A stretch of 64,000 bases of DNA from Burkholderiaceae bacterium. GTDB taxonomy: Bacteria > Pseudomonadota > Gammaproteobacteria > Burkholderiales > Burkholderiaceae_C. Both the position numbers and the translations under genes were made by a program. The notes under the pieces are model-generated. The model did not search any database. It was not told the DNA's origin and saw nothing but the letters and a program-made list of their open reading frames with translations. Positions 23,976-39,374 of this stretch are shown piece after piece (position 1 is the first letter of the stretch; every line of letters begins with the position of its first letter). The stretch is from positions 62,001 through 126,000 of the forward strand of contig JAKLLA010000012.1 in assembly GCA_023150375.1 (NCBI GenBank). The letters are read 5' to 3'.

Positions 23976-24061
23976 GGCGGTCTCCTGTCGGGCGCCGGCG
24001 TGAGCACCGCATCGAGGCGGGCGCGGATCCGGTCGAATGCTCGGCGTAGATTGGATGTTAA

Positions 24062-24076
24062 TGAAGTATTGCTACA
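24062..24076. promoter_or_regulatory. HexR-like site upstream of pulA
   Basis: TGAAG-TATTG-CTACA matches the TGTAG-N5-CTACA pattern at nine of ten half-site positions. It lies in the divergent region between pulA (start 23975, leftward) and the GH13 lipoprotein gene (rightward), closer to pulA. The same pattern occurs at 24171, 37228 and 37370. Confidence 0.55.
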
Positions 24077-24164
24077 TGAAAAACTGCGAGCTAACCCTAG
24101 TACCCTTCAAACGACTGGCGGGCAAGATCGTGAAACGCGCCGAATTCTGACAAGGAGAGATTTT

Positions 24165-24254
24165 GTGATCTGTAGCTGCACTACATGCAATCGGCCTGGT
24201 CTGCCCGGTGGTCTCGCTTCGCCCGCGGCTCGGGCCCTCCGGTGGATGCCATGA
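24165..24254 (+). CDS. Possible 29-residue leader peptide before the GH13 lipoprotein gene
   Basis: A GTG codon at 24165 follows a strong Shine-Dalgarno sequence (AAGGAGAG, 24152-24159) at ideal spacing and opens a 29-codon frame. Its TGA stop (24252-24254) overlaps the ATG of the GH13 gene (ATGA). The peptide is rich in Cys, Pro and Gly and resembles nothing known. The HexR-like inverted repeat lies within codons 3-7. It may couple translation to the GH13 gene, whose own start lacks a good ribosome-binding site. The frame could also be fortuitous. Confidence 0.4.
   Translation: MICSCTTCNRPGLPGGLASPAARALRWMP
24171..24185. promoter_or_regulatory. HexR-like site (perfect inverted repeat)
   Basis: TGTAG-CTGCA-CTACA is a perfect 5-5-5 inverted repeat 66 bases before the GH13 lipoprotein start. 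It agrees with the known HexR consensus of proteobacteria (TGTAR...YTACA). A glucokinase-HexR fusion is encoded 13 kb away in the same island. Confidence 0.7.
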
Positions 24255-25903
24255 CGCGGGCCCTGCGCAGCGGCGCGGCCGTCTGTCTGCTGGCGCTGGT
24301 CCTCGCCGGCTGTGGTGGGGGCGGTGGCGGGGGGGGCTCGGGCAGCACGACGCCGGAGCCCACGCCGCTGCCGCCGGTGGCGGCCGACCTGTCGCCGGTG
24401 GCCGCGCGCGACGGCGGCTCGGCCCTGCCGGCCCAGTGGCAGGGCGGCGCCTTCATGCAGATCTTCGTGCGCAGCTACCAGGACAGCGACGGCGACGGCA
24501 TCGGCGACCTGCGCGGGCTGATCCAGCGCCTGGACTACCTGCAGGACCTGGGGGTCAAGGGTCTGTGGCTGATGCCCATCGGCCCGAGCCAGGACCGCGA
24601 CCATGGCTACGCGGTCACCGACTACCGCGCGGTGGAGCCCCGCTACGGCACGCTGGCCGACTTCGACGAACTGCTTCGCCAGGCCCATGCCCGCGGCATC
24701 GGCGTGATCGTCGACTACGTGATCAACCACAGTGCCGCACAGCATCCGCTGTTCGTCCACGCCGGCACCTGGCCGACCAGCCCGGTGCGCGACTGGTATC
24801 TCTGGCAGCAGATCTCCAAGCCTGCCGGCTGGAGCATCTACGGCAGCGACCCCTGGCGCCGCCACCCCGCCGGGGGCTGGTACTTTGCCGCCTTCTGGGA
24901 CCAGATGCCCGACTTCGACCTGCGCAACCCCGAGGTGGTCCGCTGGCACCACGACAACCTGCGCTTCTGGCTGAACCGCGGGGTGGACGGGTTCCGCTTC
25001 GATGCGGTGGGCCATCTGGTCGAGAACGGCCCCGGCGCCTGGGACAACCAGCCCGAGAACCTGACGCTGCTGCGCGCGGTGCGCGACGAGGTGCTGGGCG
25101 CCTATGCGCGGCGCTACCTGGTCTGCGAGGGGCCGGGCGCGCCGCTGGCCTACCAGTCGGCCTGCGGCAGTGCCTTCGCCTTCGGCCACCATGCCCGCGT
25201 GCTGCAGGCCGCGCGCGGGGATGTGGCGGCCATCGCCGCGGTGGCCGACCACTTCCGCAGCGCGCCCCTGGGCATGGCCACCCTGCTGGCGAACCACGAC
25301 AGCTTCGCCGGCCAGCGCGTGCACGACCAGCTGGGCGGCAACCTGGCGCAGTACCGGCTGGCCGCGGCAACCTATCTGCTGATGCCCGGCACGCCCTTCA
25401 TCTACTACGGCGAGGAGATCGGCATGGCCGGGGCGGCCTCGCTGAGCGGCGATCCGAAGCTGCGCACGCCGATGAGCTGGAGCGGCGATGTCCGCCACGC
25501 CGGTTTCACCACCGGCATTCCCTACCGGGCGCTGTCGGCCAACGTGACGACGATGAATGTGGCGGCCCAGCAGGCCGACCCGGCCTCGCTGCTGTCCTTC
25601 TACCGCGCCATGCTGGCGCTGCGCAACGGCCTGGCGCCGCTGGCGCGCGGCAGCTGGGAGGCCGCCCGGCAGGAGGGTCAGGTGCTGAGCTTCCAGCGCG
25701 CGCTGGACGGCGAGCGGGTGCTGGTGGCGATCAACTACGGCAGCTCGGCGGCCCAGGCCCGGGTGAGCGGTCTGGCCGCCTCGGCCCGGCTCGAGAGCCG
25801 CTTCCCGTCCGGCGCCGCCGATCTGGCGGCCGACGCGGCCGGGGCCCTGGGCATCGACCTGCCGGCGCAGTCGCTGCGGGTCTTCGTGGTTCGCGAACCC
25901 TGA
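24251..25903 (+). CDS. GH13 alpha-amylase-family lipoprotein
   Basis: The 550-residue enzyme has a lipoprotein signal (VLAGC, Cys21) followed by a Gly/Ser/Pro linker. The GH13 barrel then shows QIFVRSYQDSDGDGIGDL (a calcium-site-like loop), HGYAVTDY, GVIVDYVINHS, GFRFDAVGHL (nucleophile Asp), a CEG acid/base candidate and ANHDSF. The GDGIGDL loop is typical of oligo-1,6-glucosidase, trehalose synthase and neopullulanase groups, so it probably trims maltodextrins outside the inner membrane. The ATG at 24251 is chosen for the signal peptide. It is divergent from pulA and shares the regulatory region with two HexR-like sites. Exact bond specificity is not determined. Confidence 0.88.
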   Translation: MTRALRSGAAVCLLALVLAGCGGGGGGGGSGSTTPEPTPLPPVAADLSPVAARDGGSALPAQWQGGAFMQIFVRSYQDSDGDGIGDLRGLIQRLDYLQDLGVKGLWLMPIGPSQDRDHGYAVTDYRAVEPRYGTLADFDELLRQAHARGIGVIVDYVINHSAAQHPLFVHAGTWPTSPVRDWYLWQQISKPAGWSIYGSDPWRRHPAGGWYFAAFWDQMPDFDLRNPEVVRWHHDNLRFWLNRGVDGFRFDAVGHLVENGPGAWDNQPENLTLLRAVRDEVLGAYARRYLVCEGPGAPLAYQSACGSAFAFGHHARVLQAARGDVAAIAAVADHFRSAPLGMATLLANHDSFAGQRVHDQLGGNLAQYRLAAATYLLMPGTPFIYYGEEIGMAGAASLSGDPKLRTPMSWSGDVRHAGFTTGIPYRALSANVTTMNVAAQQADPASLLSFYRAMLALRNGLAPLARGSWEAARQEGQVLSFQRALDGERVLVAINYGSSAAQARVSGLAASARLESRFPSGAADLAADAAGALGIDLPAQSLRVFVVREP

Positions 25904-25969
25904 CCCTGACGGCCCCGCTGCTCGGGCGACGCAGCGGCGGCCCGGCCGGTGCACGCCGGGCTCGCTCTC

Positions 25970-27337
25970 TCAGAGCGCGTCGATGATTTCCTTGCGCTTG
26001 CGCTGGAACTCCTCTTCGGTGATCAGGCCGTGGTCGCGCAGGCGGCGCAGGGTCTTCAGGCGCAGTTCCTGTTCTTCCAGGAAGGCCGGATCGCGTCGCG
26101 CGGGCGGGGCGCTGGCGCGTGCCGCGCCACTGGCCGCGGGTGCCGCGACGGGCGCGGCCGCGGCTGCGACCGCCGGCGGTGAGGCCGGAGTTGTGGCAGC
26201 GGGTGGGGTCGGTGCGGCGGCTGCGGCGGCTGCGGGTGGTGCGGCCGGGGCAGCGCTGGGGGTGCTGGCGGCGCCTGGGGCGGCCACGACCGGCCGGGGC
26301 GGGGCGACGGCCGGGGCAGGCGGCGTGTCCGTTTCACCCACCCCGGTGAGGACGGCCAGCGCCTGCGCCAGCCGCTGCGCCGCCGGGTCCGCCGTGGGCG
26401 GCTTCGCGGCGCCGGGCAGGGTCGGGGCCGCAACCCGGCCACCCAGGCCGACCAGCGTGCCGCTGCCGAGCTGCGCCGTCTGGGCCGCGGCGTCGGGGGC
26501 CAGCAGGTCGACGATGGCGGTGGCGGGGGGGCGGCTGCCGGTCCAGCCCATCGTGGTGGCCGGCTGGCCGGCCTGCGGCTGGGCCACGCCGAGCGACAGC
26601 CGCGGCGCAGCCTCTGCGGCGCCGGCCGGGCTGCTGCTCCAGCGGGCCGACCGGCCGAGCTCGGCCGGGATGGTGAGCTGGGCGGCGGTGAGTACCGCGA
26701 TCAGCGACGACTGCGGCAGCGCTCGGGCGGCCACGAAGCGCTGCGGCACGGTGAAGCTCAGGCTGCGCCCGCGTACGCGCAGGTCGCGCACGAAGTGCAC
26801 CGCGGCGGCCACGGTGGCCTCGGCAGTGGCTTCGTCGCTGCCGGTGGCTTCGGCCACGGCATCGCGCAGCTGGCGCTGCATCAGCTCCGGCCGGGGCGTG
26901 ACGACGATGGCGCGCTCCCAGGCATGGGCCGGGTCGATGCGCCCGCCGCGTCCGGGCAGCAGGGCCTGCTGGCCCGAGCCGGTGCGGCGGTCGGTGTCGA
27001 GGTAGAGATCGAGGTTGAAGGCGTAGAAGCCGCGCCGTGCGAAGACCGACAGGTCCTCGTTGCCCAGCGTGCCCGACTTCAGCGAGGCGGGGTGGCGAAT
27101 CGGCTGGGCCAGGCCGATCTCGAAGCGCAGCTGATCGCCTTCCTCGTGCACCTGCAGGCTGCGCAGGTCCAGGTCGCCGCTCTCGTAGACGGCTTCACGG
27201 GGGTAGAGCAGGCGGCCGTCGCCGCGGTCGTCCCCGGGCGGATCGGCGTATTGCAGCAGGGGCGGCAGCAGGGGCGCCGACTGCGCGGCGAGGGTGGCCG
27301 GCAGCAGCGCGGCAAGGGCAAGCAGGCGCAGGTTCAT
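25970..27337 (-). CDS. Secreted DOMON/glucodextranase-C-like protein with C-terminal SHOCT
   Basis: The 455-residue protein has a cleavable signal peptide (ending LAAQS). A domain like the C-terminal DOMON-type module of glucodextranase and archaeal amylopullulanases follows (ADPPGDDRGDG... YPREAVYESGDLDLRSLQV... NLDLYLDTD). Then come about 120 residues of Ala/Pro-rich linker and a C-terminal SHOCT motif (about the last 35 residues, RLKTLRRLRDHGLITEEEF). SHOCT is a short helical oligomerisation module more usual in membrane or cytoplasmic proteins. The gene stands alone behind a terminator that ends the mal operon. It is a paralogue of the gene at 29354 and may bind glucan. The function is inferred only from domain and place. 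Confidence 0.72.
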   Translation of the reverse strand: MNLRLLALAALLPATLAAQSAPLLPPLLQYADPPGDDRGDGRLLYPREAVYESGDLDLRSLQVHEEGDQLRFEIGLAQPIRHPASLKSGTLGNEDLSVFARRGFYAFNLDLYLDTDRRTGSGQQALLPGRGGRIDPAHAWERAIVVTPRPELMQRQLRDAVAEATGSDEATAEATVAAAVHFVRDLRVRGRSLSFTVPQRFVAARALPQSSLIAVLTAAQLTIPAELGRSARWSSSPAGAAEAAPRLSLGVAQPQAGQPATTMGWTGSRPPATAIVDLLAPDAAAQTAQLGSGTLVGLGGRVAAPTLPGAAKPPTADPAAQRLAQALAVLTGVGETDTPPAPAVAPPRPVVAAPGAASTPSAAPAAPPAAAAAAAPTPPAATTPASPPAVAAAAAPVAAPAASGAARASAPPARRDPAFLEEQELRLKTLRRLRDHGLITEEEFQRKRKEIIDAL

Positions 27338-27477
27338 CGTTCAGGGGGGTCGAGCAGGCCCGGGGCCGAGGAGCACAGCCTCGCACAGCCAGGCCGGGGC
27401 CGGTGTCCGGGGGAACGCGCATCGCCGCCGCGGTGCCGGCCGGCCGGTGCCGCGGCGGCGACCGCGCGCCGGAAGCA

Positions 27478-27511
27478 GAAAAGGCCCGGCTCCGGGTCGG
27501 AGACGGGCCTT
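27478..27511 (-). terminator. Terminator of the mal operon
   Basis: Read on the minus strand, AAGGCCCG (27511-27504) pairs with CGGGCCTT (27488-27481) and is followed by further T residues (27482-27479). It lies 29 bases downstream of the outer-membrane barrel gene and separates it from the DOMON-SHOCT gene. Confidence 0.85.
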
Positions 27512-27539
27512 GCCGCAGGCAGGCCGTGCTGGCCCGGGA

Positions 27540-29321
27540 TCAGAAGATCGCCTTGACGAAGGCCTTCATGCGGTACTGCTTGATGTCGCTGGTCGCGCCG
27601 GTCTCGCCCGGATCGCCGTCGCCCTTGATCCACTGCGACAGCAGCCCGGTCTCGAAGCCGGCCAGGTTGTACGACAGGCGCAGGCTCAGGATGTCCTTGT
27701 CGTTGGCGAAGCGCGCCCCTGGACGGGTGATGTCGCGGCTGTAGCGGCCCCAGGAGACGCTGCCGTACAGGTCGCTGAAGAGCTGGTTGCCCACGCTCAG
27801 GGTCAGGCCCTTGTCCTTGGTGTCGCGGTCGTCGGTGGCGTTGGCGGCCTGGCCGTCGTTGCTGTCGCTCACCGTCTTGTACTTCGCGTTCAGCTCCAGT
27901 CCGCCCATCACCGGGACCACGTAGCCGATCTTGAAGACGGCCAGGTTGGTGCGGCGGTCGTTGTTGGCGGCGAAGAAGTTCGACAGCGGACCGGTGGCCG
28001 AGTAGTTCTGCCAGTTGTAGTTGTAGCCGATGCGGGTCAGCTCCAGCGACATCGGGATCTTGGCGACCTCGTAGTTGACCAGCAGGGTGTGGCCCTTCCA
28101 GCCCTGCACCGACTCGTTGGGCGCCTCGTCGAAGTCCATGAAGGCGTTGTCGACCAGGCCGTTCGCGCCGGCGGCCAGGCCGCTGTCGCTGCGGCAGACG
28201 CCGCCACCGGAGACCGCGCACTTGGCCGAGGAGGGCGCCTGCTGGTAGTCCCGTGCCGCGCCACCCAGCCACAGCGACTGGCCCCAGCCATACCAGGCGG
28301 CCTCGGAGCCTTCGGTCAGCAGCACGTCGGTCTCACGCCGGGCGGCGGTGTTGCTGTAGAAGCCCGCACCGATGTTGAAGTACTGGTAGTTGACCGACAG
28401 ACCCGGCACCGGCAGCGCGTTCAGGCCGATGTCCAGCTTGACGGCGTTGCCGTTGATGTCGGACTTCGGGCTGTTGATCCAGGCCTGGTCGAACAGCGGG
28501 GCCTTGTACTGGGAGCGGTAGAACGAGCCCTTCAGGTCGACGCCAGCCACGGTGCTTTCGCCCTTGAGCATCAGCACGTTGTTCTTGGCGAAGGTGCGGG
28601 TGGAGCGACCGTTCAGGTCGGTGCCATCCGTGTCGTCCAGGATGCGGTCGTTGAACCACTGGTAGCTGCCCGAGAGCTTGACGTCCGCCACGCTGGCCTT
28701 GACCTGGCCGATGTAGACGCCCTCGTTGTACTGGGTCTCGTCACTGCTGCAGCAGCTCGCGCCCTGGCCGTAGTTGGACTGCAGGTAGTTCGGCAGCGAC
28801 AGCCGCGCGGCCTCCCAGGTCAGCCCGGGTGCGCCCAGCGAGCCCTTGAAGTACAGGCCGTTGTAGTTGTCGCGGTCGATGTAGCGCACCTGGCCGATCG
28901 TGAAGGGGTCGAACTGGCCCCAGTCGCTCGAGCCGATCAGCGCGGTGTTCAGCCAGCCGTAGCCGGGGGTCAGCAGCACGTAGGCGCCGCGCAGCTTCAT
29001 CCACTTGGCGCGCGTGGCCGCCGTCTCGTCGGCGAAGCCGAAGTCGGTCCAGTAGGCCGCCGGGCTGCGGCTCTGCAGGCGGATGCCGGCTTCGACCTGC
29101 TTGGAGATGGTGGCCTTCATGCGCAGTTCGAACTCGGTCCACTGGCCGTTGTCGCTGCCGGTGGCGGTGTCGCCGCTGCTGGTGCTGACACGGCGCTGGT
29201 CACCGTCGAGGAACTTCATGTAGATGTTGGAGCCGCTGAAGTCGAGCGTGACGGCCATTGCCGGCGCGGTCAGCGCCAGGCCGACGGCGGCGGCCAGGGG
29301 CTTGAGGGTGAGCTTCTTCAT
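27540..29321 (-). CDS. Outer-membrane beta-barrel protein, putative maltodextrin porin
   Basis: The 593-residue protein starts with a classic signal peptide (MKKLTLKPLAAAVGLALTA, cleavage after AMA), continues as many amphipathic strands with aromatic girdles, and ends in a terminal Phe (FVKAIF), the mark of BAM-assembled barrels. It is not an evident LamB homologue by motif, and it resembles large porins described for alginate or oligosaccharide export/uptake. AGGAG stands seven bases before the ATG at 29321. Its place between the DOMON protein and the end of the mal operon suggests passage of maltodextrins across the outer membrane. A Cys-Cys pair and other Cys residues in predicted loops could form disulfides. 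Confidence 0.75.
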   Translation of the reverse strand: MKKLTLKPLAAAVGLALTAPAMAVTLDFSGSNIYMKFLDGDQRRVSTSSGDTATGSDNGQWTEFELRMKATISKQVEAGIRLQSRSPAAYWTDFGFADETAATRAKWMKLRGAYVLLTPGYGWLNTALIGSSDWGQFDPFTIGQVRYIDRDNYNGLYFKGSLGAPGLTWEAARLSLPNYLQSNYGQGASCCSSDETQYNEGVYIGQVKASVADVKLSGSYQWFNDRILDDTDGTDLNGRSTRTFAKNNVLMLKGESTVAGVDLKGSFYRSQYKAPLFDQAWINSPKSDINGNAVKLDIGLNALPVPGLSVNYQYFNIGAGFYSNTAARRETDVLLTEGSEAAWYGWGQSLWLGGAARDYQQAPSSAKCAVSGGGVCRSDSGLAAGANGLVDNAFMDFDEAPNESVQGWKGHTLLVNYEVAKIPMSLELTRIGYNYNWQNYSATGPLSNFFAANNDRRTNLAVFKIGYVVPVMGGLELNAKYKTVSDSNDGQAANATDDRDTKDKGLTLSVGNQLFSDLYGSVSWGRYSRDITRPGARFANDKDILSLRLSYNLAGFETGLLSQWIKGDGDPGETGATSDIKQYRMKAFVKAIF

Positions 29322-29353
29322 GATCGGGATCTCCTCTTGTGGCAATCGGGGGG

Positions 29354-30139
29354 TCACTTCTTGACCATCTTCAGCGTGGCCGGCTTGGTGGCCTTGCCGT
29401 CGGCGGCGCATTCGTGGGCGAGCATCTCGGCCTGCTTGGCGTCGGGGCCGTCGAGCACGTCCATCGTGTGCGGGTCGCAGTCGCCGTCGTTGCCGCCGCC
29501 GAAGCGGTGCTGGCCCTCGTACTCGTTGACCTTGCGGGTCAGGAAGTCGGTGGCGGCCGGGAAGCCCTCGTTGGACTGCATCACCACCTGGTAGCTCCAG
29601 CCGTCGACGTTGCCGTCGCCGCCCAGTTCGGACAGCGGCACCGAGCCGGAGATGGTCCGGCCGCGCCCGCGCGTGATGTTGGGCACCACGACGTCCTTGG
29701 CCAGGGCGCCGAGCTTGGCCTCGGCCTCGGCGGTGACGCGGGCCTTCTTCTGCGGCGACAGCACCACCACCTTGTTCCATTCGCTGCCCGGGGCGAACTT
29801 CATGTTCAGGCCGGTCCAGGTGTCGGCACGGGCATCGGGCGCGCCGGTCTTGATGAAGATGAAGACCATCTGCACCGCGAAGCCGCCGCCCATGCCCCAG
29901 GGATCCTCGAGGTTGGCGGCCACGTCCACCGAGAAGTCGACGTTGGCGCCGCTCTTCTCGGCCTTGAGCTTGACCAGGTCGAAGGAGCCGGCCTTGTAGA
30001 CGCCGTCGGTGGGGTAGGTGTAGCCGCCGGGGCCCTTGTCGTCGCCGCGCGGGTCGGTGAACTCGACCGCGTGGGCGGAAAAGCCGAGCGCCAGGGCGGC
30101 GGCCAGGGCAGCGGTGCGCAACGGAACGAACTTGCTCAT
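29354..30139 (-). CDS. Secreted DOMON/glucodextranase-C-like protein
   Basis: The 261-residue protein has a signal peptide (cleavage after SAHA) and one domain similar to the C-terminal DOMON-like module of glucodextranase: FTDPRGDDKGPGGYTYPT, then GSFDLVKLKAEKSGANVDFSV and later QMVFIFIKTG. The same DPxGDDxG...YP block occurs in the protein encoded at 25970-27337. ATG 30139 is preferred over an upstream in-frame ATG because GAGGAAA lies at the right distance. It is encoded between malG and the porin gene in one operon, so a periplasmic or surface glucan-binding role is reasonable, but there is no enzymatic motif. Confidence 0.72.
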   Translation of the reverse strand: MSKFVPLRTAALAAALALGFSAHAVEFTDPRGDDKGPGGYTYPTDGVYKAGSFDLVKLKAEKSGANVDFSVDVAANLEDPWGMGGGFAVQMVFIFIKTGAPDARADTWTGLNMKFAPGSEWNKVVVLSPQKKARVTAEAEAKLGALAKDVVVPNITRGRGRTISGSVPLSELGGDGNVDGWSYQVVMQSNEGFPAATDFLTRKVNEYEGQHRFGGGNDGDCDPHTMDVLDGPDAKQAEMLAHECAADGKATKPATLKMVKK

Positions 30140-30215
30140 GGTGGGTTTCCTCATGCTGTGCCTCGACAGGCGACGGGAGACGTCCTCGAGGTCATCCTCT
30201 CGGCGGGGTGGGGAT

Positions 30216-31088
30216 TCACTTGACGCTGCCGGCGGTCAGGCCGGAGACCAGGTACTTCTGCAGGTACATGAACAGGATCACGACCGGCAGCGACACGATG
30301 ACCGACCCGGCCGCGAAGAATCCCCACTGGGAGCTGAAGCCCCCGACGAAGAACCGCAGCCCGACCGGCGCCGTGTAGTTGGACTCGCTCTCCATGAACA
30401 CGGAGGCGAGGATGAATTCGTTCCACGCCGTCATGAACGAGAACAGCGCGGTGATCGCGATGGCCGGCTTGGCCAGCGGCAGGATGATGCGAAAGAAGAT
30501 GGTCTGCGGGCTGGCCCCGTCGATGCGCGCGGACTCCTCGATGTCCACCGGAATGGTGTCGAAGTAGCCCTTGAGCATCCACACGCAGAAGGGGATCGCG
30601 GTGGTGGCGTAGACGATCACCAGGCCCCAGAAGGTGTTGCCCAGGCCCAGCCACTTGACGATGATGATGAACAGCGGGATCAGCATCAGCGTGCCCGGGA
30701 ACATCTGGCTGACCAGGAAGGCCAGCATGCCCTGCTCACGCCCCGGGAAGCGGAAGCGGCTGAAGGCGTAGGCGGCGGTGCAGGCCAGGAACACCCCCAG
30801 CACGGTGGTCATCAGCGAGACGATCACGCTGTTGAGCAGCCAGCGGCCGAAGGGCTGCTCGGTCATCACCTCGACGAAGTTGCGCAGCGAGAACTGCGCC
30901 GGCCAGGGCAGCACGCCGCGGGCGCGCTCGAGGAAGGTCGGGTCCTTCGGCAGGTCGACGATGCCCACGCTCTGCTGGCCCGAGAAGGCCAGCGCCAGCA
31001 CCCACAGCACCGGGTACAGGGTCAGCAGCGTGAAGCTGATCAGCCCGGCGTGCAGCCAGAGCGGGTTGCGGGGTCGGCCGAGTGCCAT
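30216..31088 (-). CDS. malG: MalG-like maltodextrin ABC transporter permease
   Basis: The 290-residue inner-membrane protein has six hydrophobic segments and the EAA loop EESARIDGASPQTIFFRIILP that contacts the ATPase. This is the MalG/type I carbohydrate permease family. ATG 31088 follows the malF stop by eight bases, so the two permease genes are coupled. With MalF, MalE and MalK it forms the maltodextrin importer of this operon. Confidence 0.92.
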   Translation of the reverse strand: MALGRPRNPLWLHAGLISFTLLTLYPVLWVLALAFSGQQSVGIVDLPKDPTFLERARGVLPWPAQFSLRNFVEVMTEQPFGRWLLNSVIVSLMTTVLGVFLACTAAYAFSRFRFPGREQGMLAFLVSQMFPGTLMLIPLFIIIVKWLGLGNTFWGLVIVYATTAIPFCVWMLKGYFDTIPVDIEESARIDGASPQTIFFRIILPLAKPAIAITALFSFMTAWNEFILASVFMESESNYTAPVGLRFFVGGFSSQWGFFAAGSVIVSLPVVILFMYLQKYLVSGLTAGSVK

Positions 31089-31096
31089 GGCTTGCC

Positions 31097-33022
31097 TCAG
31101 TAGCTTTCGGTCGCGCGGGTCAGGCGGGTCTGGAAGTAGCCGTAGACGAGCAGGATCACGAAGATCACCGTCGAGTAGGCGGCCGCGTAGGCGTACTGGT
31201 ACTGCTCGAACGCAATCTTGTAGGCCTTGGTGATCAGGATCTCGTTGGCGCCGCCGGGCTCGCCGCCGCTGACCAGGAAGATGATGTTGAACATGTTGAA
31301 GGTCCACACCACCGACAGCACCACCGCCGGCACCAGGGTGGGCCGCAGCAGCGGCAGCGTGATGCTGCGGAACTGCTGCCAGCGGCTGGCGCCCTCCACC
31401 TCGGCGGCTTCGTACATGTCCTTCGGGATGGACTGCAGCGCGCCCAGGATCACCACCATCATGAAGGGGAAGCTCAGCCAGCCGTTGGTGATCAGGCCGG
31501 TCATGAAGGCGCTGACCACGCCGTCGAACCAGCGCACCGGCTCGAGGCCGAACATCTGCAGGAACTGGTTGATCACGCCGAACTGCGGGTGGAACATGCC
31601 GCGCCAGACCAGCGCGGTGATGTAGTTCGGGATGGCCCAGGGCAGGATCAGCAGCACCCGGTAGATCGTCTTGCCCTTGAAGCCCTCGGTGTTCAGCGCC
31701 AGCGCGAGCAGGAAGCCGAAGGTCACCCCCACGGTGACGTTGGTGATCGTCCAGATCACCGTCGTCATCAAGGTCCAGTAGAAGTTCGAGTAGTTCACCA
31801 CCGTGCCTTCGGCGGTGTGTCGCACGACGTCGAAGTCGCCCAGGATGGCGAAGAAGTTCTGCAGCCCGATCCAGCGTTCCCGGAAGGGCAGCTGCTCGTT
31901 GAACAGCGTGGTGTCGGTGAAGGCCAGCGCGATGCCGTAGAAGAAGGGGAAGAACACCAGCACCAGCATGCCCAGCATGGCCGGCGTGATGTAGGCATAG
32001 GCCGTGGCGTTGTCGCGCAGCGCACGCACCGTGCGGGCCGCCCAGCCCTGCAGGAAGAAGGCCAGCAGCAGCAGGCCCAGGGCATCGAGGGCCCAGAAGC
32101 TGCGCGACAGGAAGCGCTCGTGGCTGGCCAGCGCCGCGTCGGCCTTCGGCAGCAGGCGGCCGTCACCGGCCAGCAGCCCGAGCGGGCGGCCGTAGGCGTC
32201 GGTGTCCCAGGCGCTGGTGGCGGCCTGGGCGGCGGCGGCCGAGCCGGTGACCGCCGCATGCGTGGCGGCCACGCCGGCCTGCAGCCGGGCGGTGTGCTGC
32301 AGGTCGGCGGCATGGCGCTCGGCCAGCGCCTGCAGCTGGCTGTGCTGGAAGAAGCCGGCCGCCCCCAGCAGCAGCACGGCGGCCAGCGCCCGGCCGAGGT
32401 CGAAGCGCCGGCCGGCCGCGTCCACGCGCAGGAAGGCGCCGACGATCAGGGCCGCAGCCAGCAGCGCCAGCGCGGTGCCCGTGCCGGTGCCCATGCCGCG
32501 GGTTGCCCCGTCGGCACCGGTGGCCGCGGCGCGCAGCTGCGCCTGCACCATGCCGGTGACCTGGTCGCCGCTGCGCAGCGGCACGCTGACGGTGATGCGG
32601 CCGTCGCGGGCGGTCTCCACGCGCAGCGTCTTCTTGGTGACGCGGCCGTCCTGGCGGTGCGTCTCCTCGGCGCTGCGCAGCTCGCTGGCCAGGTCGAAGA
32701 GCGGCTTTTCCTCGCGCTGCAGGCCGCGCGGGGCCCCGTCCTGCGGATCGGACGACGCCACGAGTTCCCGGCCGGCGACCACCCGCACCGACTCGAGGGC
32801 CGGCTGTGCGGCGCGGAACTGCGCCAGCCGCCGGGCGGTGTCGTCCGCGTCCGTGTCGGCCAGCGCAGCCGCCAGGGCCTGGGTGAGCAGCAGGGCGTCG
32901 CGCTGCTGCTGGGCCTGTGCCAGATCGCGGCCGACGCTCGAGGCCAGCCAGGCCGACAGCGCCAGCACGACGGCCAGGGCGACACCCAGGCCGAGCGAGG
33001 CGGTACCGGAGAGCCGTTTCAT
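31097..33022 (-). CDS. malF: MalF-like permease with long N-terminal membrane extension
   Basis: The C-terminal 300 residues are a normal MalF-type permease: ITPAMLGMLVLVFFPFFYG, LILPWAIPNYITALVWRGMF, and the EAA loop YEAAEVEGASRWQQFRSITLP. The first 340 residues are unusual. A signal-anchor helix (about 8-27) is followed by about 155 periplasmic residues looking like a sensor/Cache-type segment, two helices (about 183-199 and 212-227), about 80 more periplasmic residues, and a helix at 308-326 before the permease. The total of 641 residues far exceeds E. coli MalF (514), whose extra P2 loop sits elsewhere. The start codon context is simple (ATG 33022), and the frame is open throughout without sign of fusion by frameshift. 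Confidence 0.88.
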   Translation of the reverse strand: MKRLSGTASLGLGVALAVVLALSAWLASSVGRDLAQAQQQRDALLLTQALAAALADTDADDTARRLAQFRAAQPALESVRVVAGRELVASSDPQDGAPRGLQREEKPLFDLASELRSAEETHRQDGRVTKKTLRVETARDGRITVSVPLRSGDQVTGMVQAQLRAAATGADGATRGMGTGTGTALALLAAALIVGAFLRVDAAGRRFDLGRALAAVLLLGAAGFFQHSQLQALAERHAADLQHTARLQAGVAATHAAVTGSAAAAQAATSAWDTDAYGRPLGLLAGDGRLLPKADAALASHERFLSRSFWALDALGLLLLAFFLQGWAARTVRALRDNATAYAYITPAMLGMLVLVFFPFFYGIALAFTDTTLFNEQLPFRERWIGLQNFFAILGDFDVVRHTAEGTVVNYSNFYWTLMTTVIWTITNVTVGVTFGFLLALALNTEGFKGKTIYRVLLILPWAIPNYITALVWRGMFHPQFGVINQFLQMFGLEPVRWFDGVVSAFMTGLITNGWLSFPFMMVVILGALQSIPKDMYEAAEVEGASRWQQFRSITLPLLRPTLVPAVVLSVVWTFNMFNIIFLVSGGEPGGANEILITKAYKIAFEQYQYAYAAAYSTVIFVILLVYGYFQTRLTRATESY

Positions 33023-33089
33023 GGAGGGGCAGTGCCTGGAAGGGTCGGTCAGGGTCGGGACGCGGGGGGACGGAAGCCGGCCGCAGCGC

Positions 33090-34310
33090 TCACTTGCCCT
33101 TGCGCAGGGCCGTGATGCCTTCCTGGATCGTGCCGGCCGCCTCCTTCAGCGCCGCGTCCACCGTGGCATTGCCCTTGACGATCTTGTTCATCGCCGTGGT
33201 GGCAGGCGACCAGACCATGGTCATCTCCGGGCGGTTGGGCATCGGCTCGGCGTTCTCCAGCTGCTCGCGGAAGGCCTTCAGGACCGGGTCGCCGGCCACC
33301 TTCGGATTGGCGTAGACGGCCTTGTTGGTGTGCAACTGCCGACCCTCGGTGGCCAGCACCAGCCCGGCCTCCTCGCTGGTCAGGTGCTTGACCAGTTCGT
33401 AGGCCACCTCCTTGTGCGCCGAGCTGGCGGCGATGTAGGCGCCCTCGATGGTCATCCAGGGCCGCATCGGCTTCTTCGTGGCGTCCACCACCGGCAGCGG
33501 GGCGAAGCCCACGTTGATCTTCCTGTCGATGTCGCCGACGAACCAGGGGCCGTTGATGACCATGGCGGCCTTGCCCTCGTTGAACATCGAGGCGATCAGC
33601 GCCTCGCTGGGCTCGGTGGGCATCACGCCGTCGGTCTTGTACCAGGTCATCATCTGGTTCAGCGACGCGGCAGTGGCCCGGCTGTCGAGCGTGAGCTTGC
33701 CGTCCTTGTCGAACACCGCGCCGCCGAAGGCGTTCATCAGCGCCGAATGGAAGTAGAAGTTGGTGTACCAGTAGGCCAGCCCGTAGCGCCCGCTGCCGGC
33801 GTTGGTCAGGGACTTGGCCAGCTTGACCATCTCGCCGGTGGTCTTCGGCGGGGTCTTGACCAGGTCCTTGTTGTAGATCAGCGTGGGCATCTTGTAGTTG
33901 ATCGGCAGGCCCCAGACGCTGCCCTTGTAGGTCATCGCGTCGATCATTCCGGGCAGCAGCCGCTCGCGGGTGGCCTTGTCGACGAAGAAGTCGATCGACT
34001 CCACCGTCTTGCCTGCCTCGATCCAGCCGCCCAGCCGGTCCTGGGCGTAGATGAACACGTCCGGGCCCTTGCCGCGCGGCACGGCGGCGCTGATCTTGTC
34101 GGCGTAGGCGTCGTAGGGGATGGCCAGCGCGGACACCTTCATGCCCTTGGCGGCCGGGGACTTCGCGAACTGCTCGAGCACCTTCTCGAAGGCGGCCTTC
34201 TCGGCGGCGCGGTAGGCGTGCCAGATCACGATTTCCTTGCCCTGGGCCAGGGCCGGGCCGGTCAGGGCGAACACGGCGGCGGCGATCAGGGTGCGGGTGG
34301 GCAACTTCAT
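33090..34310 (-). CDS. malE: MalE-like maltodextrin-binding protein
   Basis: The 406-residue periplasmic protein starts with a signal peptide (cleavage after ALAQ) and shows the MalE/group 1 solute-binding fold: IVIWHAYRAAEKAAFEKVLEQF, DVFIYAQDRLGGWIEAGK, AAMVINGPWFVGDI and GAYIAASSAHKEVAYELVKHL. It delivers maltose or maltodextrin to MalFG. It lies between malK and malF. Strong expression relative to the permeases is typical, but no separate promoter or attenuator is visible in the 67-base gap to malF. Confidence 0.92.
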   Translation of the reverse strand: MKLPTRTLIAAAVFALTGPALAQGKEIVIWHAYRAAEKAAFEKVLEQFAKSPAAKGMKVSALAIPYDAYADKISAAVPRGKGPDVFIYAQDRLGGWIEAGKTVESIDFFVDKATRERLLPGMIDAMTYKGSVWGLPINYKMPTLIYNKDLVKTPPKTTGEMVKLAKSLTNAGSGRYGLAYWYTNFYFHSALMNAFGGAVFDKDGKLTLDSRATAASLNQMMTWYKTDGVMPTEPSEALIASMFNEGKAAMVINGPWFVGDIDRKINVGFAPLPVVDATKKPMRPWMTIEGAYIAASSAHKEVAYELVKHLTSEEAGLVLATEGRQLHTNKAVYANPKVAGDPVLKAFREQLENAEPMPNRPEMTMVWSPATTAMNKIVKGNATVDAALKEAAGTIQEGITALRKGK

Positions 34311-34392
34311 GATGGGGTCTTCTCCGGAAGGCGTTGGCAGGGGGCGTGTCGGACATGGGCCGCGGCGCGCGGGGCGCGCCCGGCGGCCGGCG

Positions 34393-35511
<1,119 letters not shown>

Positions 35512-35570
35512 GGTCGGGTCGCGGCAGGGCGGGTTGACGGGCGGTTGACGGGGCGGACGGACCGGGCGGT

Positions 35571-37133
35571 TCAGCGCGGCGTGGCGCCGGCCGGCACGAG
35601 GATGCGCACCGAGCGGGGGGGCAGTTCGGTCTTCAGCCGGCCCTCCGCCGCCTCGGCCGAGCCGCCCCCGAGGCGGTCGATCCAGGCGCCGGCGGGCCAG
35701 CCGGCGGGCAGGGTGACCTCGGCGGGAACGGCCTCGTCCTCGCGGTTGGCCAGCACGATCACCCGGTCGTCCCCGGCGGCGGTCTCGCGGCCGAAGGCCA
35801 GCGCGCGGTCGGCCGGCCGGGTCAGCATCTCGTAGCGGCCCGTGCTCAGCGCGGGATGCTGACGGCGGATCTCGATCAGGCGCTTGTAGTAAGCCCGCAT
35901 GGCCTCGTCGCGCGCCACGCCCTGGCCGGGCAGGATCGTCCGATCGCCCCAGGGCATGTCGTTGCGGTTGAAGGGCCAGTCGTGTCCGCCGCGGGCGACT
36001 TCCTCGCCGTAGTAGATCACCGGCATACCCAGCGAGGTCATCTGCAGCGCCACGCACAACCGCATGCGGCTGCGGTTCCCTTGCAGGTTGCCCAGCATCA
36101 TCGGCTCGTCGTGCGAGGACAGGTAGTGCGCCAGCAGGTAGCCCGGCCGCACCTTGTGGCGCCCGCGCAGGTAGGCGGCATAGGCGACGCTGCGGCCGCG
36201 GCCGGTGACCCAGGACTCGCAGTTGCCCTTGAAGCTGAAATCGAAGCCTGCGTCCACCTCGTCGCGCTCGAAGAAGCCGTCCAGCGACTGGGCATCGCCG
36301 CCCCAGTGCTCGGCCAGCAGGAAGAAGTCCTGCCCCAGGGCCTCGCGGGTGCGGCGGCGGTGCTCGGCCCAGACGTCGCTGGACACATGCTTGTAGGTGT
36401 CGAGCCGGAAGCCGGCCACGCCGGCGCGCCGGGCCAGGGCGATGTTCGCGCCGATCAGGTGGTCGCGCACCTCGGGGATCTCGGTGCGGAAGTCGGGCAG
36501 GCCGCCGACCGCGCAGCGGATCGGATCGACCTCGCACTGGCCTTCGCCGCGACGCAGCCAGGGCTCGCCGTCGGCCGTCTTGCGGTCGGTGTAGCGGCTG
36601 CTGTAGCCGGCGTGGTTGATCACCACGTCCAGCACCACCTTGATGCCGCGCTGGCGGGCCTCGTCGACCAGGCGCTTCAGGTCGGCCTCGTCGCCGAAGT
36701 GCGGATCCATCTTCTCGAAGTCCTGGATCCAGTAGCCGTGGAAGCCTTCGTGGGTGAACCACTCGGCCCCGGCGGCCTGCGCCGTCATGCCCTTGGCCTG
36801 CTGCAGCTGCACCGGGTTGATCCACAGCGCGGTGACGCCCAGGTCGCGCAACTCGTCGAGCTGCTGCGTCAGGCCTTTCAGGTCGCCGCCGTGCCAGCCG
36901 CCGGGGTTGCGCCGGTCCACGCCCTGGTTGTTGGTCGGGTCGCCGTCGGCAAAGCGGTCGATCAGCACGAAGTACATCACCTCGCGCGACCAGTCCGCTG
37001 CCGCGTGGGCCGGGGCCCACAGCGCCAGACAGCAGGCGGCCAGGAGGGCGCGCCAGAGACCGCCCCGCGCCCTGCGCGGTGCGGTGGTGGAGCAATCGGC
37101 GAGGTGGCGCAACGGCATCGGTTCAGGCGGCAT
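35571..37133 (-). CDS. Periplasmic GH13 alpha-amylase-family enzyme
   Basis: The roughly 520-residue enzyme carries a signal peptide (hydrophobic LLAACCLALWA, cleavage after AHA). Its GH13 blocks are VMYFVLIDRFADGD, VVLDVVINHAG, AGFRLDTYKH (nucleophile Asp), FFLLAEHWGG (acid/base Glu) and LSSHDEP (transition-state Asp). ADGDPTNNQGVD near the N-terminus is the calcium-binding type loop seen in cyclomaltodextrinase-like and secreted amylases. Start choice between 37133 and 37118 is open, and neither has a strong Shine-Dalgarno. It is the first gene of the mal operon, with a HexR-like site about 95 bases upstream. Confidence 0.85.
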   Translation of the reverse strand: MPPEPMPLRHLADCSTTAPRRARGGLWRALLAACCLALWAPAHAAADWSREVMYFVLIDRFADGDPTNNQGVDRRNPGGWHGGDLKGLTQQLDELRDLGVTALWINPVQLQQAKGMTAQAAGAEWFTHEGFHGYWIQDFEKMDPHFGDEADLKRLVDEARQRGIKVVLDVVINHAGYSSRYTDRKTADGEPWLRRGEGQCEVDPIRCAVGGLPDFRTEIPEVRDHLIGANIALARRAGVAGFRLDTYKHVSSDVWAEHRRRTREALGQDFFLLAEHWGGDAQSLDGFFERDEVDAGFDFSFKGNCESWVTGRGRSVAYAAYLRGRHKVRPGYLLAHYLSSHDEPMMLGNLQGNRSRMRLCVALQMTSLGMPVIYYGEEVARGGHDWPFNRNDMPWGDRTILPGQGVARDEAMRAYYKRLIEIRRQHPALSTGRYEMLTRPADRALAFGRETAAGDDRVIVLANREDEAVPAEVTLPAGWPAGAWIDRLGGGSAEAAEGRLKTELPPRSVRILVPAGATPR

Positions 37134-37227
37134 GGGACAGCGGACGAGCGGCGGATGAGCAGCGGATGAGCGACTGACCGGCCGGTGTCGGCTCGGTTGG
37201 GCGTCGGTTGGACTTCGAAAGGATTCT

Positions 37228-37242
37228 TGTAGCTGAACTACG
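37228..37242. promoter_or_regulatory. HexR-like site in front of the mal operon
   Basis: TGTAG-CTGAA-CTACG matches nine of ten half-site positions of TGTAG-N5-CTACA. It is 95 bases before the reported start of the GH13 gene that heads the mal operon. Confidence 0.65.
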
Positions 37243-37369
37243 AAATGACACCCGGTGGAAACCCGCATGCATCACAACTCAGGCGGAACCATAGTGATTT
37301 GACGTGCCACAATTTTTGTTCTCGGCCTCGGTTCCTGCCGAGATGGCTCTCCTTGTGAGGGAGCATGTT

Positions 37370-37384
37370 TGTTGTTTCACTACA
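37370..37384. promoter_or_regulatory. HexR-like site in front of glk-hexR
   Basis: TGTTG-TTTCA-CTACA matches nine of ten half-site positions of TGTAG-N5-CTACA. It lies 65 bases before the start of the gene for the HexR-type regulator itself, which fits autoregulation. Confidence 0.6.
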
Positions 37385-37448
37385 TCATTTCCGTGCCGGT
37401 GGCCGGATTGGGTAGGCTGTACGGCTCTGAACGATCGATGGACGGGAC

Positions 37449-39374
37449 ATGACGACGGTGGATTTCGAATCGCCACGCCTGGTGGCGGACATCGACGGGG
37501 CGCGCGCGCGCTTCGCCCTCGAGATCCGGCGCGGCGTGCTGCGCCAGACGATGGTGCTGGCCTGCGCCGCCTATCCGGACTTCGTGTCGGCCGTGCGGGC
37601 CTACCTGGCGCGGGCGCAGCCGGCCCAGCCGGTGGTCCATGCCGCGGTGGCCATCGCCAATCCGGTCGTGGGCGACTGGGTGCAGATGACCAACCACGAC
37701 TGGCAGTTCTCGATCGAGCAGGCACGCGACCAGCTGGGTCTGACCACGCTGGTGGTGGTGAACGATTTCACCGCCCTGGCCTCGGCCATTCCGAAGCTGG
37801 GGCGCGAACAGCTGCGCCAGGTCGGCGGCGGCCTGGTGCGCGAGAACAGCGTGCTGGCCGTGCTGGGCGCCGGCACCGGGCTGGGCGTCTCGGGACTGGT
37901 GCCGGGGGAGCAGGCCTGGACGTCGCTGGGCTCCGAAGGCGGGCACTGCGCCTTCGCCCCCTGCGACGCGCGGGAGGATCGCATCCTGGCCCATGTGCGG
38001 CGGCGCTTCGCGCATGTGTCCTTCGAGCGCCTGTTGTCGAGCAGCGGGCTGCCGCTGATCCACGAAGCGCTGGCGTGCGACGACCGGGACGGCAGCGCCG
38101 AGGCGACCCCGACGCCCGATGCGGCGCAGATCCTGAGCCGGGCGCTGGAGGACGGCGATGCCCATTGCCTGGAGGTGCTCGACGCCTTCTGCTGCATGCT
38201 CGGCACCGTGGCCGCCAACCTGGCGGTGACGCTCGGGGCCTTCGGCGGCGTCTACATCGGCGGCGAGATCGTGCAGCGCCTGGGCGAGCGCTTCGACCGC
38301 TCGGGCTTCCGGGCCCGCTTCGAGGCCAAGGGGCGCTTCCGGGCCTACGTGTCGGGCATCCCGACCTTCGTCATCACCGACGAGGATGCGGCGCTGCGCG
38401 GTGCGGCCGAGATTCTCGACACGCAGCTGCGCCGGGTGGGGCCGGGGTCGAGCCTGCTGGACCGCATCCGGCGCGCCCGCGACGCGCTGACCAAGGCCGA
38501 GCGGCGCGTGGCCGACCGCGTGCTGGAGATGCCGCGCCAGGTGCTCAACGAACCGATCGCCGAGATCGCCCGCCTGGCCGATGTGAGCCAGCCCACCGTG
38601 ATCCGCTTCTGCCGCTCGCTGGGCTGCGAGGGCCTGTCGGACTTCAAGCTGCGGCTGGCCTCGGGCCTGGCCGGATCGGTGGCGGTGACGCACAGCCAGG
38701 TGCGTGACGACGACTCGATGCTGGAGCTGGGCACCAAGGTGCTGGACAACACCTCCACCGCGATCCGCCAGGTGCGTGAGAGCCTGGGCGAGGAGGCGCT
38801 GGAGCAGGCGCTGGAGGGACTGCTGAGGGCCTCGCGGGTCGAGTTCTTCGCGCTCAGCCACTACGGCATGGTGGCGCAGGACGCGCACATCAAGTTCCTG
38901 CGCCTGGGCGTGCCCAGCGGCGTGCACACCGACGCCGGGCTGCTGCGTCCGGCCGCCGCAGTGCTGCGGCGCGGCGACGCCGCGGTGTTCATCAGCGCGA
39001 GCGGCTCGGCGACCGATCTGCTCGAGGCCGCGGAACAGGCCCGTGCGCAGGGCGCGGTGGTCATCGCGATCACCGGCAGCCACACGCCGCTGGCGCGGCG
39101 GGCCGACCTGACGCTGGTGGTCGACCACGCGGAGGACCAGGACACGCCGCTGGTGATGATCAGCCGCATCCTCTATCTGCTGGTGATCGACGTCCTGGCG
39201 CTGGGCATGGCGCTGCGCCGGGGCCTGCACGGTCCGCTGGCACAGGCCGCCGCGACCCGCTCGGCCGGGCTGCCGTCCCCGCCCGTCGACGCCACCGAGG
39301 CCCCCGCCGGCGAGGCTGCAGGGCCGGACAGTGCCGGCGTGGCCCTGGCGCACTGGAGCCTGCACGGCCGCTGA
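37449..39374 (+). CDS. Glucokinase-HexR (RpiR-family) fusion protein
   Basis: The 641-residue protein joins a bacterial glucokinase domain (about residues 10-330) to an RpiR/HexR-type regulator: helix-turn-helix with IAEIARLADVSQPTVIRFCRSLG near 365-395, and a sugar-phosphate-binding SIS domain near 455-590 with VFISASGSATDLLEA. Such fusions occur in Burkholderiales, where HexR responds to KDPG. The kinase part keeps the catalytic Asp106 (VNDFTAL), GAGTGLG (140-146) and EGGH (163-166). The first phosphate-binding motif, usually GGTNAR, reads DGARAR at 16-21, which may weaken ATP binding. A short Pro/Ala-rich tail follows the SIS domain. A HexR-like site sits upstream of the gene. Confidence 0.9.
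   Translation: MTTVDFESPRLVADIDGARARFALEIRRGVLRQTMVLACAAYPDFVSAVRAYLARAQPAQPVVHAAVAIANPVVGDWVQMTNHDWQFSIEQARDQLGLTTLVVVNDFTALASAIPKLGREQLRQVGGGLVRENSVLAVLGAGTGLGVSGLVPGEQAWTSLGSEGGHCAFAPCDAREDRILAHVRRRFAHVSFERLLSSSGLPLIHEALACDDRDGSAEATPTPDAAQILSRALEDGDAHCLEVLDAFCCMLGTVAANLAVTLGAFGGVYIGGEIVQRLGERFDRSGFRARFEAKGRFRAYVSGIPTFVITDEDAALRGAAEILDTQLRRVGPGSSLLDRIRRARDALTKAERRVADRVLEMPRQVLNEPIAEIARLADVSQPTVIRFCRSLGCEGLSDFKLRLASGLAGSVAVTHSQVRDDDSMLELGTKVLDNTSTAIRQVRESLGEEALEQALEGLLRASRVEFFALSHYGMVAQDAHIKFLRLGVPSGVHTDAGLLRPAAAVLRRGDAAVFISASGSATDLLEAAEQARAQGAVVIAITGSHTPLARRADLTLVVDHAEDQDTPLVMISRILYLLVIDVLALGMALRRGLHGPLAQAAATRSAGLPSPPVDATEAPAGEAAGPDSAGVALAHWSLHGR

What the first reader, a model, noticed from the sequence alone, without database searches (positions are those of the whole stretch)
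24062..37384. A HexR-type regulon read from four shared inverted repeats around a glucan island
Four copies of TGTAG-N5-CTACA (24062, 24171, 37228, 37370; 9-10 of 10 half-site matches) lie in the control regions of pulA, the GH13 lipoprotein gene, the mal operon and the gene of a Glk-HexR fusion. Seen in sequence: sites and gene order. Established: HexR proteins of proteobacteria bind a TGTAR...YTACA palindrome and respond to KDPG. Inferred: extracellular starch/maltodextrin use here is placed under the central-sugar regulator, besides a LacI protein.
Basis: partly seen in the sequence, partly recalled or inferred. Interest (0 to 1): 0.75.

Follow-up and report, generated by a model that had tools for sequence, protein, structure and literature searches.

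The report
Starch-gene switch built on glucokinase
Four short DNA signs in front of this bacterium's starch genes are very probably landing sites for a protein that joins a glucokinase-like part to a gene switch, and this switch looks separate from the cell's ordinary central-sugar switch.

Summary
TGTAG-N5-CTACA occurs at 24062, 24171, 37228 and 37370 (9, 10, 9, 9 of 10 bases), two in each divergent promoter region of a starch/maltodextrin island; none of 20,000 shuffles gave two. In relatives the sites lie before the same fusion gene (50 of 60 loci), before malKEFG, and in one genome between pulA and the GH13 gene. Perfect TGTAGYNNNRCTACA occurs in 12 of 12 genomes with such a fusion and in 0 of 13 others.

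The sites track the glucokinase-RpiR fusion, but a separate HexR lies beside zwf, and zwf/tal and edd carry TGTAA-N5-TTACA, the only two such sites in this genome at up to one mismatch. The fusion lacks six of nine KDPG contacts known from RccR, so KDPG control is doubtful. Its glucokinase part keeps the sugar-binding residues but has altered ATP motifs.

Best reading: an autoregulated glucan regulon of a HexR paralogue with its own operator, perhaps sensing glucose. In Burkholderia-group genomes the same operator precedes zwf. Binding and ligand are untested.

The parts
24062..24076 (.). operator, 9/10, between pulA and the GH13 lipoprotein gene (87 bp before pulA ATG)
24171..24185 (.). operator, 10/10, the only perfect TGTAGN5CTACA in the genome; 66 bp before ATG 24251
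37228..37242 (.). operator, 9/10, about 95 bp before the GH13-malKEFG operon (ATG 37133)
37370..37384 (.). operator, 9/10, 65 bp before the fusion gene (autoregulation, inferred)
37449..39374 (+). glucokinase-RpiR fusion (Glk 11-324, HTH_6 336-408, SIS 458-584), the proposed regulator
35571..37133 (-). GH13 alpha-amylase-type protein, first gene of the mal operon
34393..35511 (-). MalK-type ABC ATPase (UgpC model above cut-off; MalK model below)
33090..34310 (-). MalE-type sugar-binding protein (best NCBIfam model MalE, below its cut-off)
31097..33022 (-). MalF-type permease (best model MalF, below its cut-off)
30216..31088 (-). MalG-type permease (best model MalG, below its cut-off)
20439..23975 (-). 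pullulanase-type alpha-1,6-glucosidase (TIGR02103, above cut-off)
24251..25903 (+). GH13 lipoprotein gene (start chosen by signal peptide)
19260..20420 (+). LacI-family regulator, rival regulator; not claimed as part of the system

Best explanation
The four palindromes are operators of the glucokinase-RpiR fusion encoded at 37449-39374. The fusion represses (inferred from HexR and RccR, which repress) its own gene, the GH13-malKEFG operon, pulA and the GH13 lipoprotein gene, and lets go when starch sugars reach the cell. Its operator TGTAGY-N3-RCTACA differs by one base per half-site from TGTAAY-N3-RTTACA, found before zwf/tal and edd and presumably bound by the stand-alone HexR; so two paralogous switches split the genome into a glucan and a central-sugar regulon. 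Sites often come in pairs (77-281 bp apart in relatives), which would suit a tetramer holding two operators (inferred; no helical phasing seen). The effector is probably not KDPG; another phosphosugar in the remodelled SIS pocket, or glucose held by the glucokinase domain, is more likely. Shown: sites, statistics, conservation, co-occurrence, paralogue split, residue losses. Inferred: binding, sign of regulation, ligand.
For: Chance excluded in the two regions. 50 of 60 fusion loci not linked to zwf have the site at <=1 mismatch within 600 bp upstream, 25 perfect; seven other spacers 0-1; best of 29 other half-site permutations 12. Perfect TGTAGYNNNRCTACA in 12 of 12 fusion genomes (33 sites), 0 of 13 others; 29 of the 33 stand before the fusion/glk pair or glucan uptake and breakdown genes. 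Same pair between pulA and GH13 in G108. Burkholderia-group zwf-fusion loci: perfect TGTAGTTAAACTACA before zwf in 16 of 16. Own genome: TGTAAYNNNRTTACA at <=1 mismatch only at zwf/tal and edd; zwf 12 of 13 and edd 12 of 13 genomes with the TGTAA type at <=2 mismatches. Recognition helices differ.
Against: No binding or expression data. 10 of 60 loci lack a site at <=1 mismatch. 14 of 60 also match TGTAA-N5-TTACA at <=1 mismatch, none perfectly, so the two operators are not far apart and cross-binding is possible. The total number of sites in fusion genomes (33) is below the reversed control (47). The same-genus genome G058 has no perfect site; its fusion is distant (42%) and has a TGTAA-type site. 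G108's edd carries two TGTAG-type sites. Only one of the four window sites is perfect. In the tree the grouping of all fusions apart from HexR/RccR is weak (90/66), though both inner clades are strong.
Confidence: 0.8

Rival explanations
1. One reading: the fusion is the HexR that answers to KDPG and puts starch use under the central-sugar regulator.
For: RpiR/HexR-type domain (228.7 bits to the HexR model); in the Burkholderia group the fusion is encoded with zwf; KDPG is the ligand of both HexR and RccR in Pseudomonas (passages).
Against: Separate zwf-linked HexR with 8 of 9 KDPG residues in the same genome; zwf and edd carry another operator; the fusion keeps 3 of 9 KDPG residues and its tail has no lysine; score below the HexR cut-off of 296.
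Confidence: 0.12
2. The stand-alone HexR binds both operator types, so the island is in fact under the central regulator and the fusion plays another part.
For: The operators differ by one base per half-site; 14 of 60 fusion loci also match the TGTAA type at <=1 mismatch.
Against: Where the stand-alone protein's presumed targets are seen, the TGTAA type is kept (12 of 13 zwf, 12 of 13 edd at <=2 mismatches). The TGTAG type is absent in perfect form from 13 of 13 genomes without a glucan-type fusion, among them genomes with a stand-alone RpiR match such as G010, G018 and G058.
Confidence: 0.08
3. The LacI-type protein encoded at 19260-20420 binds the four sites.
For: Its gene lies beside pulA.
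Against: Odd-length palindrome without a central CG (LacI rule recalled); no CG-centred palindrome shared by the two regions; the sites follow the fusion gene in other genomes. Presence of a LacI gene in those genomes was not scored.
Confidence: 0.05

Closest known systems
Bifunctional glucokinase/RpiR regulator (NCBIfam PRK14101; Burkholderia-group fusions)
   Same: Same domain order; 51-54% identity; same operator, there before zwf
   Different: There encoded 3' of zwf; here a glucan island, with a separate HexR at zwf; the window protein scores 714 against a cut-off of 920; different residues in the KDPG pocket
HexR of proteobacteria (RpiR family)
   Same: HTH_6 and SIS domains, 15-bp palindrome of related sequence
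   Different: Operator TGTAG not TGTAA (the zwf/edd type here); target genes; KDPG contacts mostly lost; fused glucokinase
RccR of Pseudomonas (8K3B)
   Same: Published 15-bp sites of the form TGTAGT-N3-ACTACA match this operator (passages)
   Different: RccR controls pyruvate and glyoxylate genes, is not fused, keeps all nine KDPG contacts, and does not group with the fusions
ROK repressors such as NagC and Mlc (recalled)
   Same: Analogy only: sugar-kinase fold joined to a DNA-binding domain, kinase activity lost in some
   Different: Different kinase family and DNA-binding domain (recalled); not tested

Membership tests
HexR (canonical) | HTH_6 plus SIS architecture | tested here: met
HexR (canonical) | Score above the NCBIfam HexR cut-off (296 bits) | tested here: not met
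   228.7 bits; the stand-alone protein is also below it (267.9)
HexR (canonical) | Its operator at zwf and edd in the same genome | tested here: not met
   TGTAA type there
HexR (canonical) | KDPG contact residues | tested here: not met
   3 of 9 in the window fusion
HexR (canonical) | DNA binding relieved by KDPG | not testable with these tools
   needs gel shift
Bifunctional glucokinase/RpiR (PRK14101) | Glucokinase followed by HTH_6 and SIS | tested here: met
Bifunctional glucokinase/RpiR (PRK14101) | Score above cut-off (920 bits) | tested here: not met
   714.1 bits
Bifunctional glucokinase/RpiR (PRK14101) | Working glucokinase | tested here: inconclusive
   sugar residues kept, ATP motifs altered; activity not testable
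RccR | 15-bp operator TGTAGT-N3-ACTACA | tested here: met
   sites of this form; published form from passages
RccR | KDPG contact residues | tested here: not met
RccR | Operators at aceE, aceA, glcB | not tested
   those genes were not located; the genome has no perfect TGTAGN5CTACA outside the island
LacI operator | CG-centred even palindrome shared by the two regions | tested here: not met

The most novel reading that the evidence does not exclude
A glucokinase turned glucose sensor: in this organism the fusion's kinase part binds glucose from maltodextrin breakdown but no longer phosphorylates it, and passes the signal to a HexR-derived DNA-binding part whose own KDPG pocket has been abandoned. 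A metabolic enzyme would have replaced the ligand domain of a central-sugar repressor, with a one-base operator shift keeping the two paralogous regulons apart, convergent with ROK repressors.
Probability: 0.3. Interest if true: 0.72.

Novelty: new variant of a known kind. Interest (0 to 1): 0.52.

Why it matters
It offers a clean natural case of how one regulator family splits: same scaffold, a one-base operator change, a new regulon (uptake and breakdown of alpha-glucans) and a changed effector pocket, with the central regulon still in the same genome. The Burkholderia-group arrangement (same operator, zwf) suggests that the operator stayed while the regulon moved. It also warns against calling these fusions KDPG-responsive HexR from annotation alone.

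Tried and rejected
LacI operator: no CG-centred palindrome shared by the two regions. Helical phasing of paired sites at 10.5 bp: not seen (37 spacings). Sigma-70 promoters: none found by the consensus scan in either region. A single recognition-helix residue as cause of the operator shift (Cys in RccR and most fusions, Tyr in the stand-alone HexR, Phe in the G058 fusion): attractive, but F_L195 has Tyr with TGTAG-type sites, and the fusions L039, L040, L042, L044, L045 have Phe with no assigned motif, so not claimed. The first genome-contig scan with the window protein alone gave no relative.

Errors made and mended: one search failed on a wrong frame and was repeated. Searches read several zwf/edd loci on the wrong strand; one search replaces them. 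The RpiR query was out of frame, so its hits are ignored. In one search rows S_L031, S_L033 and S_L044 are wrong-frame reads and are ignored; L016, L021 and L041 were left out there. One search tested the wrong one of two sites in L241; one search tested the right one, which is unclear. In one search rows F_L162 and F_L196 are single glucokinases lying before the fusion and give no residues. In one search the 80 named loci were split by hand into 19 set aside (16 Burkholderia-group, L192, and L228/L229, which do not lie directly in a zwf operon) and 61 others, one of which (L199) was dropped for lack of upstream DNA; with L228 and L229 back in, the count is 50 of 62. Some named loci are the same contigs as unnamed G genomes (for example L205 and L038), so searches are not independent sets. 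The 13 genomes were picked by hand: 12 without a full-length fusion, plus G058. The 12 genomes were the best fusion matches, not a random draw. The tree holds 55 rows, 34 of the 80 named fusions.

Papers: PMC5343134, PMC3223726, PMC5489143, PMC8546961, PMC5507952: passages; PMC10810197: abstract, section list and passages; all others: search listings only. Leyn et al. 2011 (PMC3195618) is not held, so its motifs could not be compared. I found no paper on a glucan regulon of this fusion in the searches (open-licence papers only; of the 8 papers I looked into two).

Full report
OBSERVATION. The four copies of TGTAG-N5-CTACA are in the sequence at the given places. They fall two and two into the divergent regions pulA/GH13 lipoprotein (23976-24250) and mal operon/fusion (37134-37448). 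In 20,000 dinucleotide shuffles of these regions the most found was one hit at <=1 mismatch, against four observed, and among 8 x 1024 gapped palindromes TGTAG-N5 stood alone. Genome-wide the loose pattern is common (81 at <=1 mismatch; reversed control 174). The refined form TGTAGYNNNRCTACA gives 23 (control 84); of the 19 outside the island 18 lie in coding-type frames and one is unclear.

WHAT THE GENES ARE. Pullulanase (TIGR02103, 1004 bits), a GH13 lipoprotein, a GH13-MalKEFG operon followed by two proteins with glucodextranase-C domains and a 593-aa protein without a Pfam match, a LacI-type regulator, and the fusion: glucokinase PF02685 (residues 11-324), HTH_6 (336-408), SIS (458-584). 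Elsewhere the genome has a stand-alone RpiR protein directly downstream of zwf and divergent from two genes that read as transaldolase and glucose-6-phosphate isomerase (these two names by eye), edd at C5:123196 and a second glucokinase at C10 with intact motifs.

THE SITES FOLLOW THE FUSION. Of 150 family genomes searched, 128 match the protein at all and 32 rows, own genome included, cover both domains. Eighty named loci were fetched (Roseateles, Rubrivivax, Pelomonas, Ideonella, Undibacterium, Limnohabitans, Burkholderia and others). Upstream of 60 not linked to zwf, 50 carry the site at <=1 mismatch, 25 perfect; seven other spacers gave 0-1, the best of 29 other half-site permutations 12, and TGTAA-N5 gave 14 at <=1 mismatch and none perfect. 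Positions 6 and 10, not part of that pattern, are pyrimidine in 100% and purine in 98% of 87 sites. Perfect TGTAGYNNNRCTACA: 33 sites in 12 of 12 fusion genomes (reversed control 47), 0 in 13 of 13 others (reversed control 26). Of the 33, 29 stand before the fusion or its divergent glk, malKEFG (with divergent glgP in the two genomes checked, glgB behind it), pulA/GH13, a TonB-dependent receptor, an ExbB operon or an amylase; 2 lie in the receptor position with the gene not called; 2 (G077 C3, inside an open frame; G028 C168, before a trpE-like gene) look like chance. G067's receptor was named by likeness only, and G007's ExbB site was assigned by analogy with G077. All 8 malK regions with upstream DNA and both have a site (MalK hits of 47% identity or more). 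In G108 the same pair lies between pulA and the GH13 gene as in the window (L082:6083 and 6162). The nearest operon relative, L162 (67-92% identical Mal proteins, same order), has one site.

TWO PARALOGUES, TWO OPERATORS. Upstream of zwf 12 of 13 genomes, and upstream of edd 12 of 13, carry TGTAA-N5-TTACA at <=2 mismatches (7 and 11 at <=1); none of the 13 zwf regions and one of the 13 edd regions (G108) has the TGTAG type at <=1. In the own genome the refined TGTAA type at <=1 mismatch occurs twice only: zwf/tal and edd. Recognition helices differ: the window fusion and most relatives VSQPTVIRFCRSLGCEG, stand-alone VSKPTVVRFCRSVGYDG; the Gln is in 77 of 78 named fusions. The same-genus genome G058 has a distant fusion (42%) with helix VSTPTVMRFCRSLGFKG and a perfect TGTAA-type site about 0.1 kb upstream of its longest frame: an independent hint that operator and helix change together. 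In Burkholderia-group genomes the fusion is encoded 3' of zwf, and a perfect TGTAGTTAAACTACA stands before zwf in 16 of 16 loci. The TGTAG operator thus seems to belong to the fusion lineage, whichever genes it controls. The tree puts the window fusion in a 26-row fusion clade (100/98) and stand-alone HexR in another (100/100); the join of all fusion groups is weak (90/66), and the window row has a long branch (0.98).

EFFECTOR. P. aeruginosa RccR holds KDPG with S139, H148, R152, H164, S183, S185, S188, K270, R277; R152A, K270A and R277A abolish binding (PMC10810197, abstract and passages). Stand-alone zwf-linked HexR proteins keep 9 of 9 in 10 of 10 relatives read, the own one 8 of 9; E. coli HexR has S,N,R,V,S,T,T,K,R. 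The window fusion has Y,I,R,G,S,S,A there and no lysine in its tail. Of 62 other fusions outside the Burkholderia group, S139 is kept in 2, H148 in 2, R152 in 61, H164 in 6, S183 in 62, S185 in 39, S188 in 0, K270 in 1; of 16 in the Burkholderia group S139, R152, S183 and S185 in 16 each, H148, H164, S188 and K270 in 0. An Arg falls in the R277 column in 29 and 12, but the tails align poorly. Two serines that contact the phosphate remain in the window protein, so a phosphosugar is possible, but KDPG in the known manner is not supported.

GLUCOKINASE DOMAIN. Sugar-binding residues known from E. coli Glk (recalled) are kept (NDFT, EGGH, SFER), but the phosphate-1 motif reads DIDGARAR (E. coli DVGGTNAR) and the adenosine motif GGEIVQR (E. 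coli AGGIVPR) (motif names recalled). Similar changes are seen in L037 and L038, and L039, L040, L042-L045 have NNFT, the catalytic aspartate (recalled) replaced. Most fusions keep GGT, so this is a trait of some members. With a second, intact-looking Glk in the genome, a glucose-binding, non-phosphorylating sensor is a fair inference, not a result.

MECHANISM. Most likely: repression by a tetramer bridging paired operators, autoregulated, relieved by a starch-derived sugar signal. Shown: sites, conservation, co-occurrence, paralogue split, residue losses. Inferred: binding, sign, ligand.

VERDICT. A new variant of a known kind.

Noticed in passing
L094:8833-10773 (G058, same genus as the window): A distant glucokinase-RpiR fusion (42% identity) beside sugar ABC genes, with another recognition helix and a perfect TGTAA-type site instead of TGTAG.
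   Followed up: partly
L039, L040, L042, L043, L044, L045: A group of fusions whose glucokinase has NNFT in place of NDFT, i.e. the presumed catalytic aspartate replaced; operator not identified.
   Followed up: partly
L192:3658 and 3786; L120 (G108 edd): TGTAG-type sites before edd in two genomes where the fusion lies near edd or carries glucan genes: possible mixed regulons.
   Followed up: partly
L073:7726-10596, L069:2134-4959, L083:14349-17117, L080:11202-14102, L067:3090-5891: Sites of the same type lie before TonB-dependent receptor genes in relatives, and before an ExbB operon in L086: outer-membrane uptake seems to be part of the regulon.
   Followed up: partly
L162:10001-11945, L196: A separate intact-looking glucokinase gene directly before the fusion in an otherwise window-like island (L162); the window lacks it and has its second glucokinase on contig C10.
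   Followed up: no
window 27540-29321: A 593-aa protein in the mal operon with no Pfam or NCBIfam match, conserved at 76% in L162; perhaps an outer-membrane porin.
   Followed up: no
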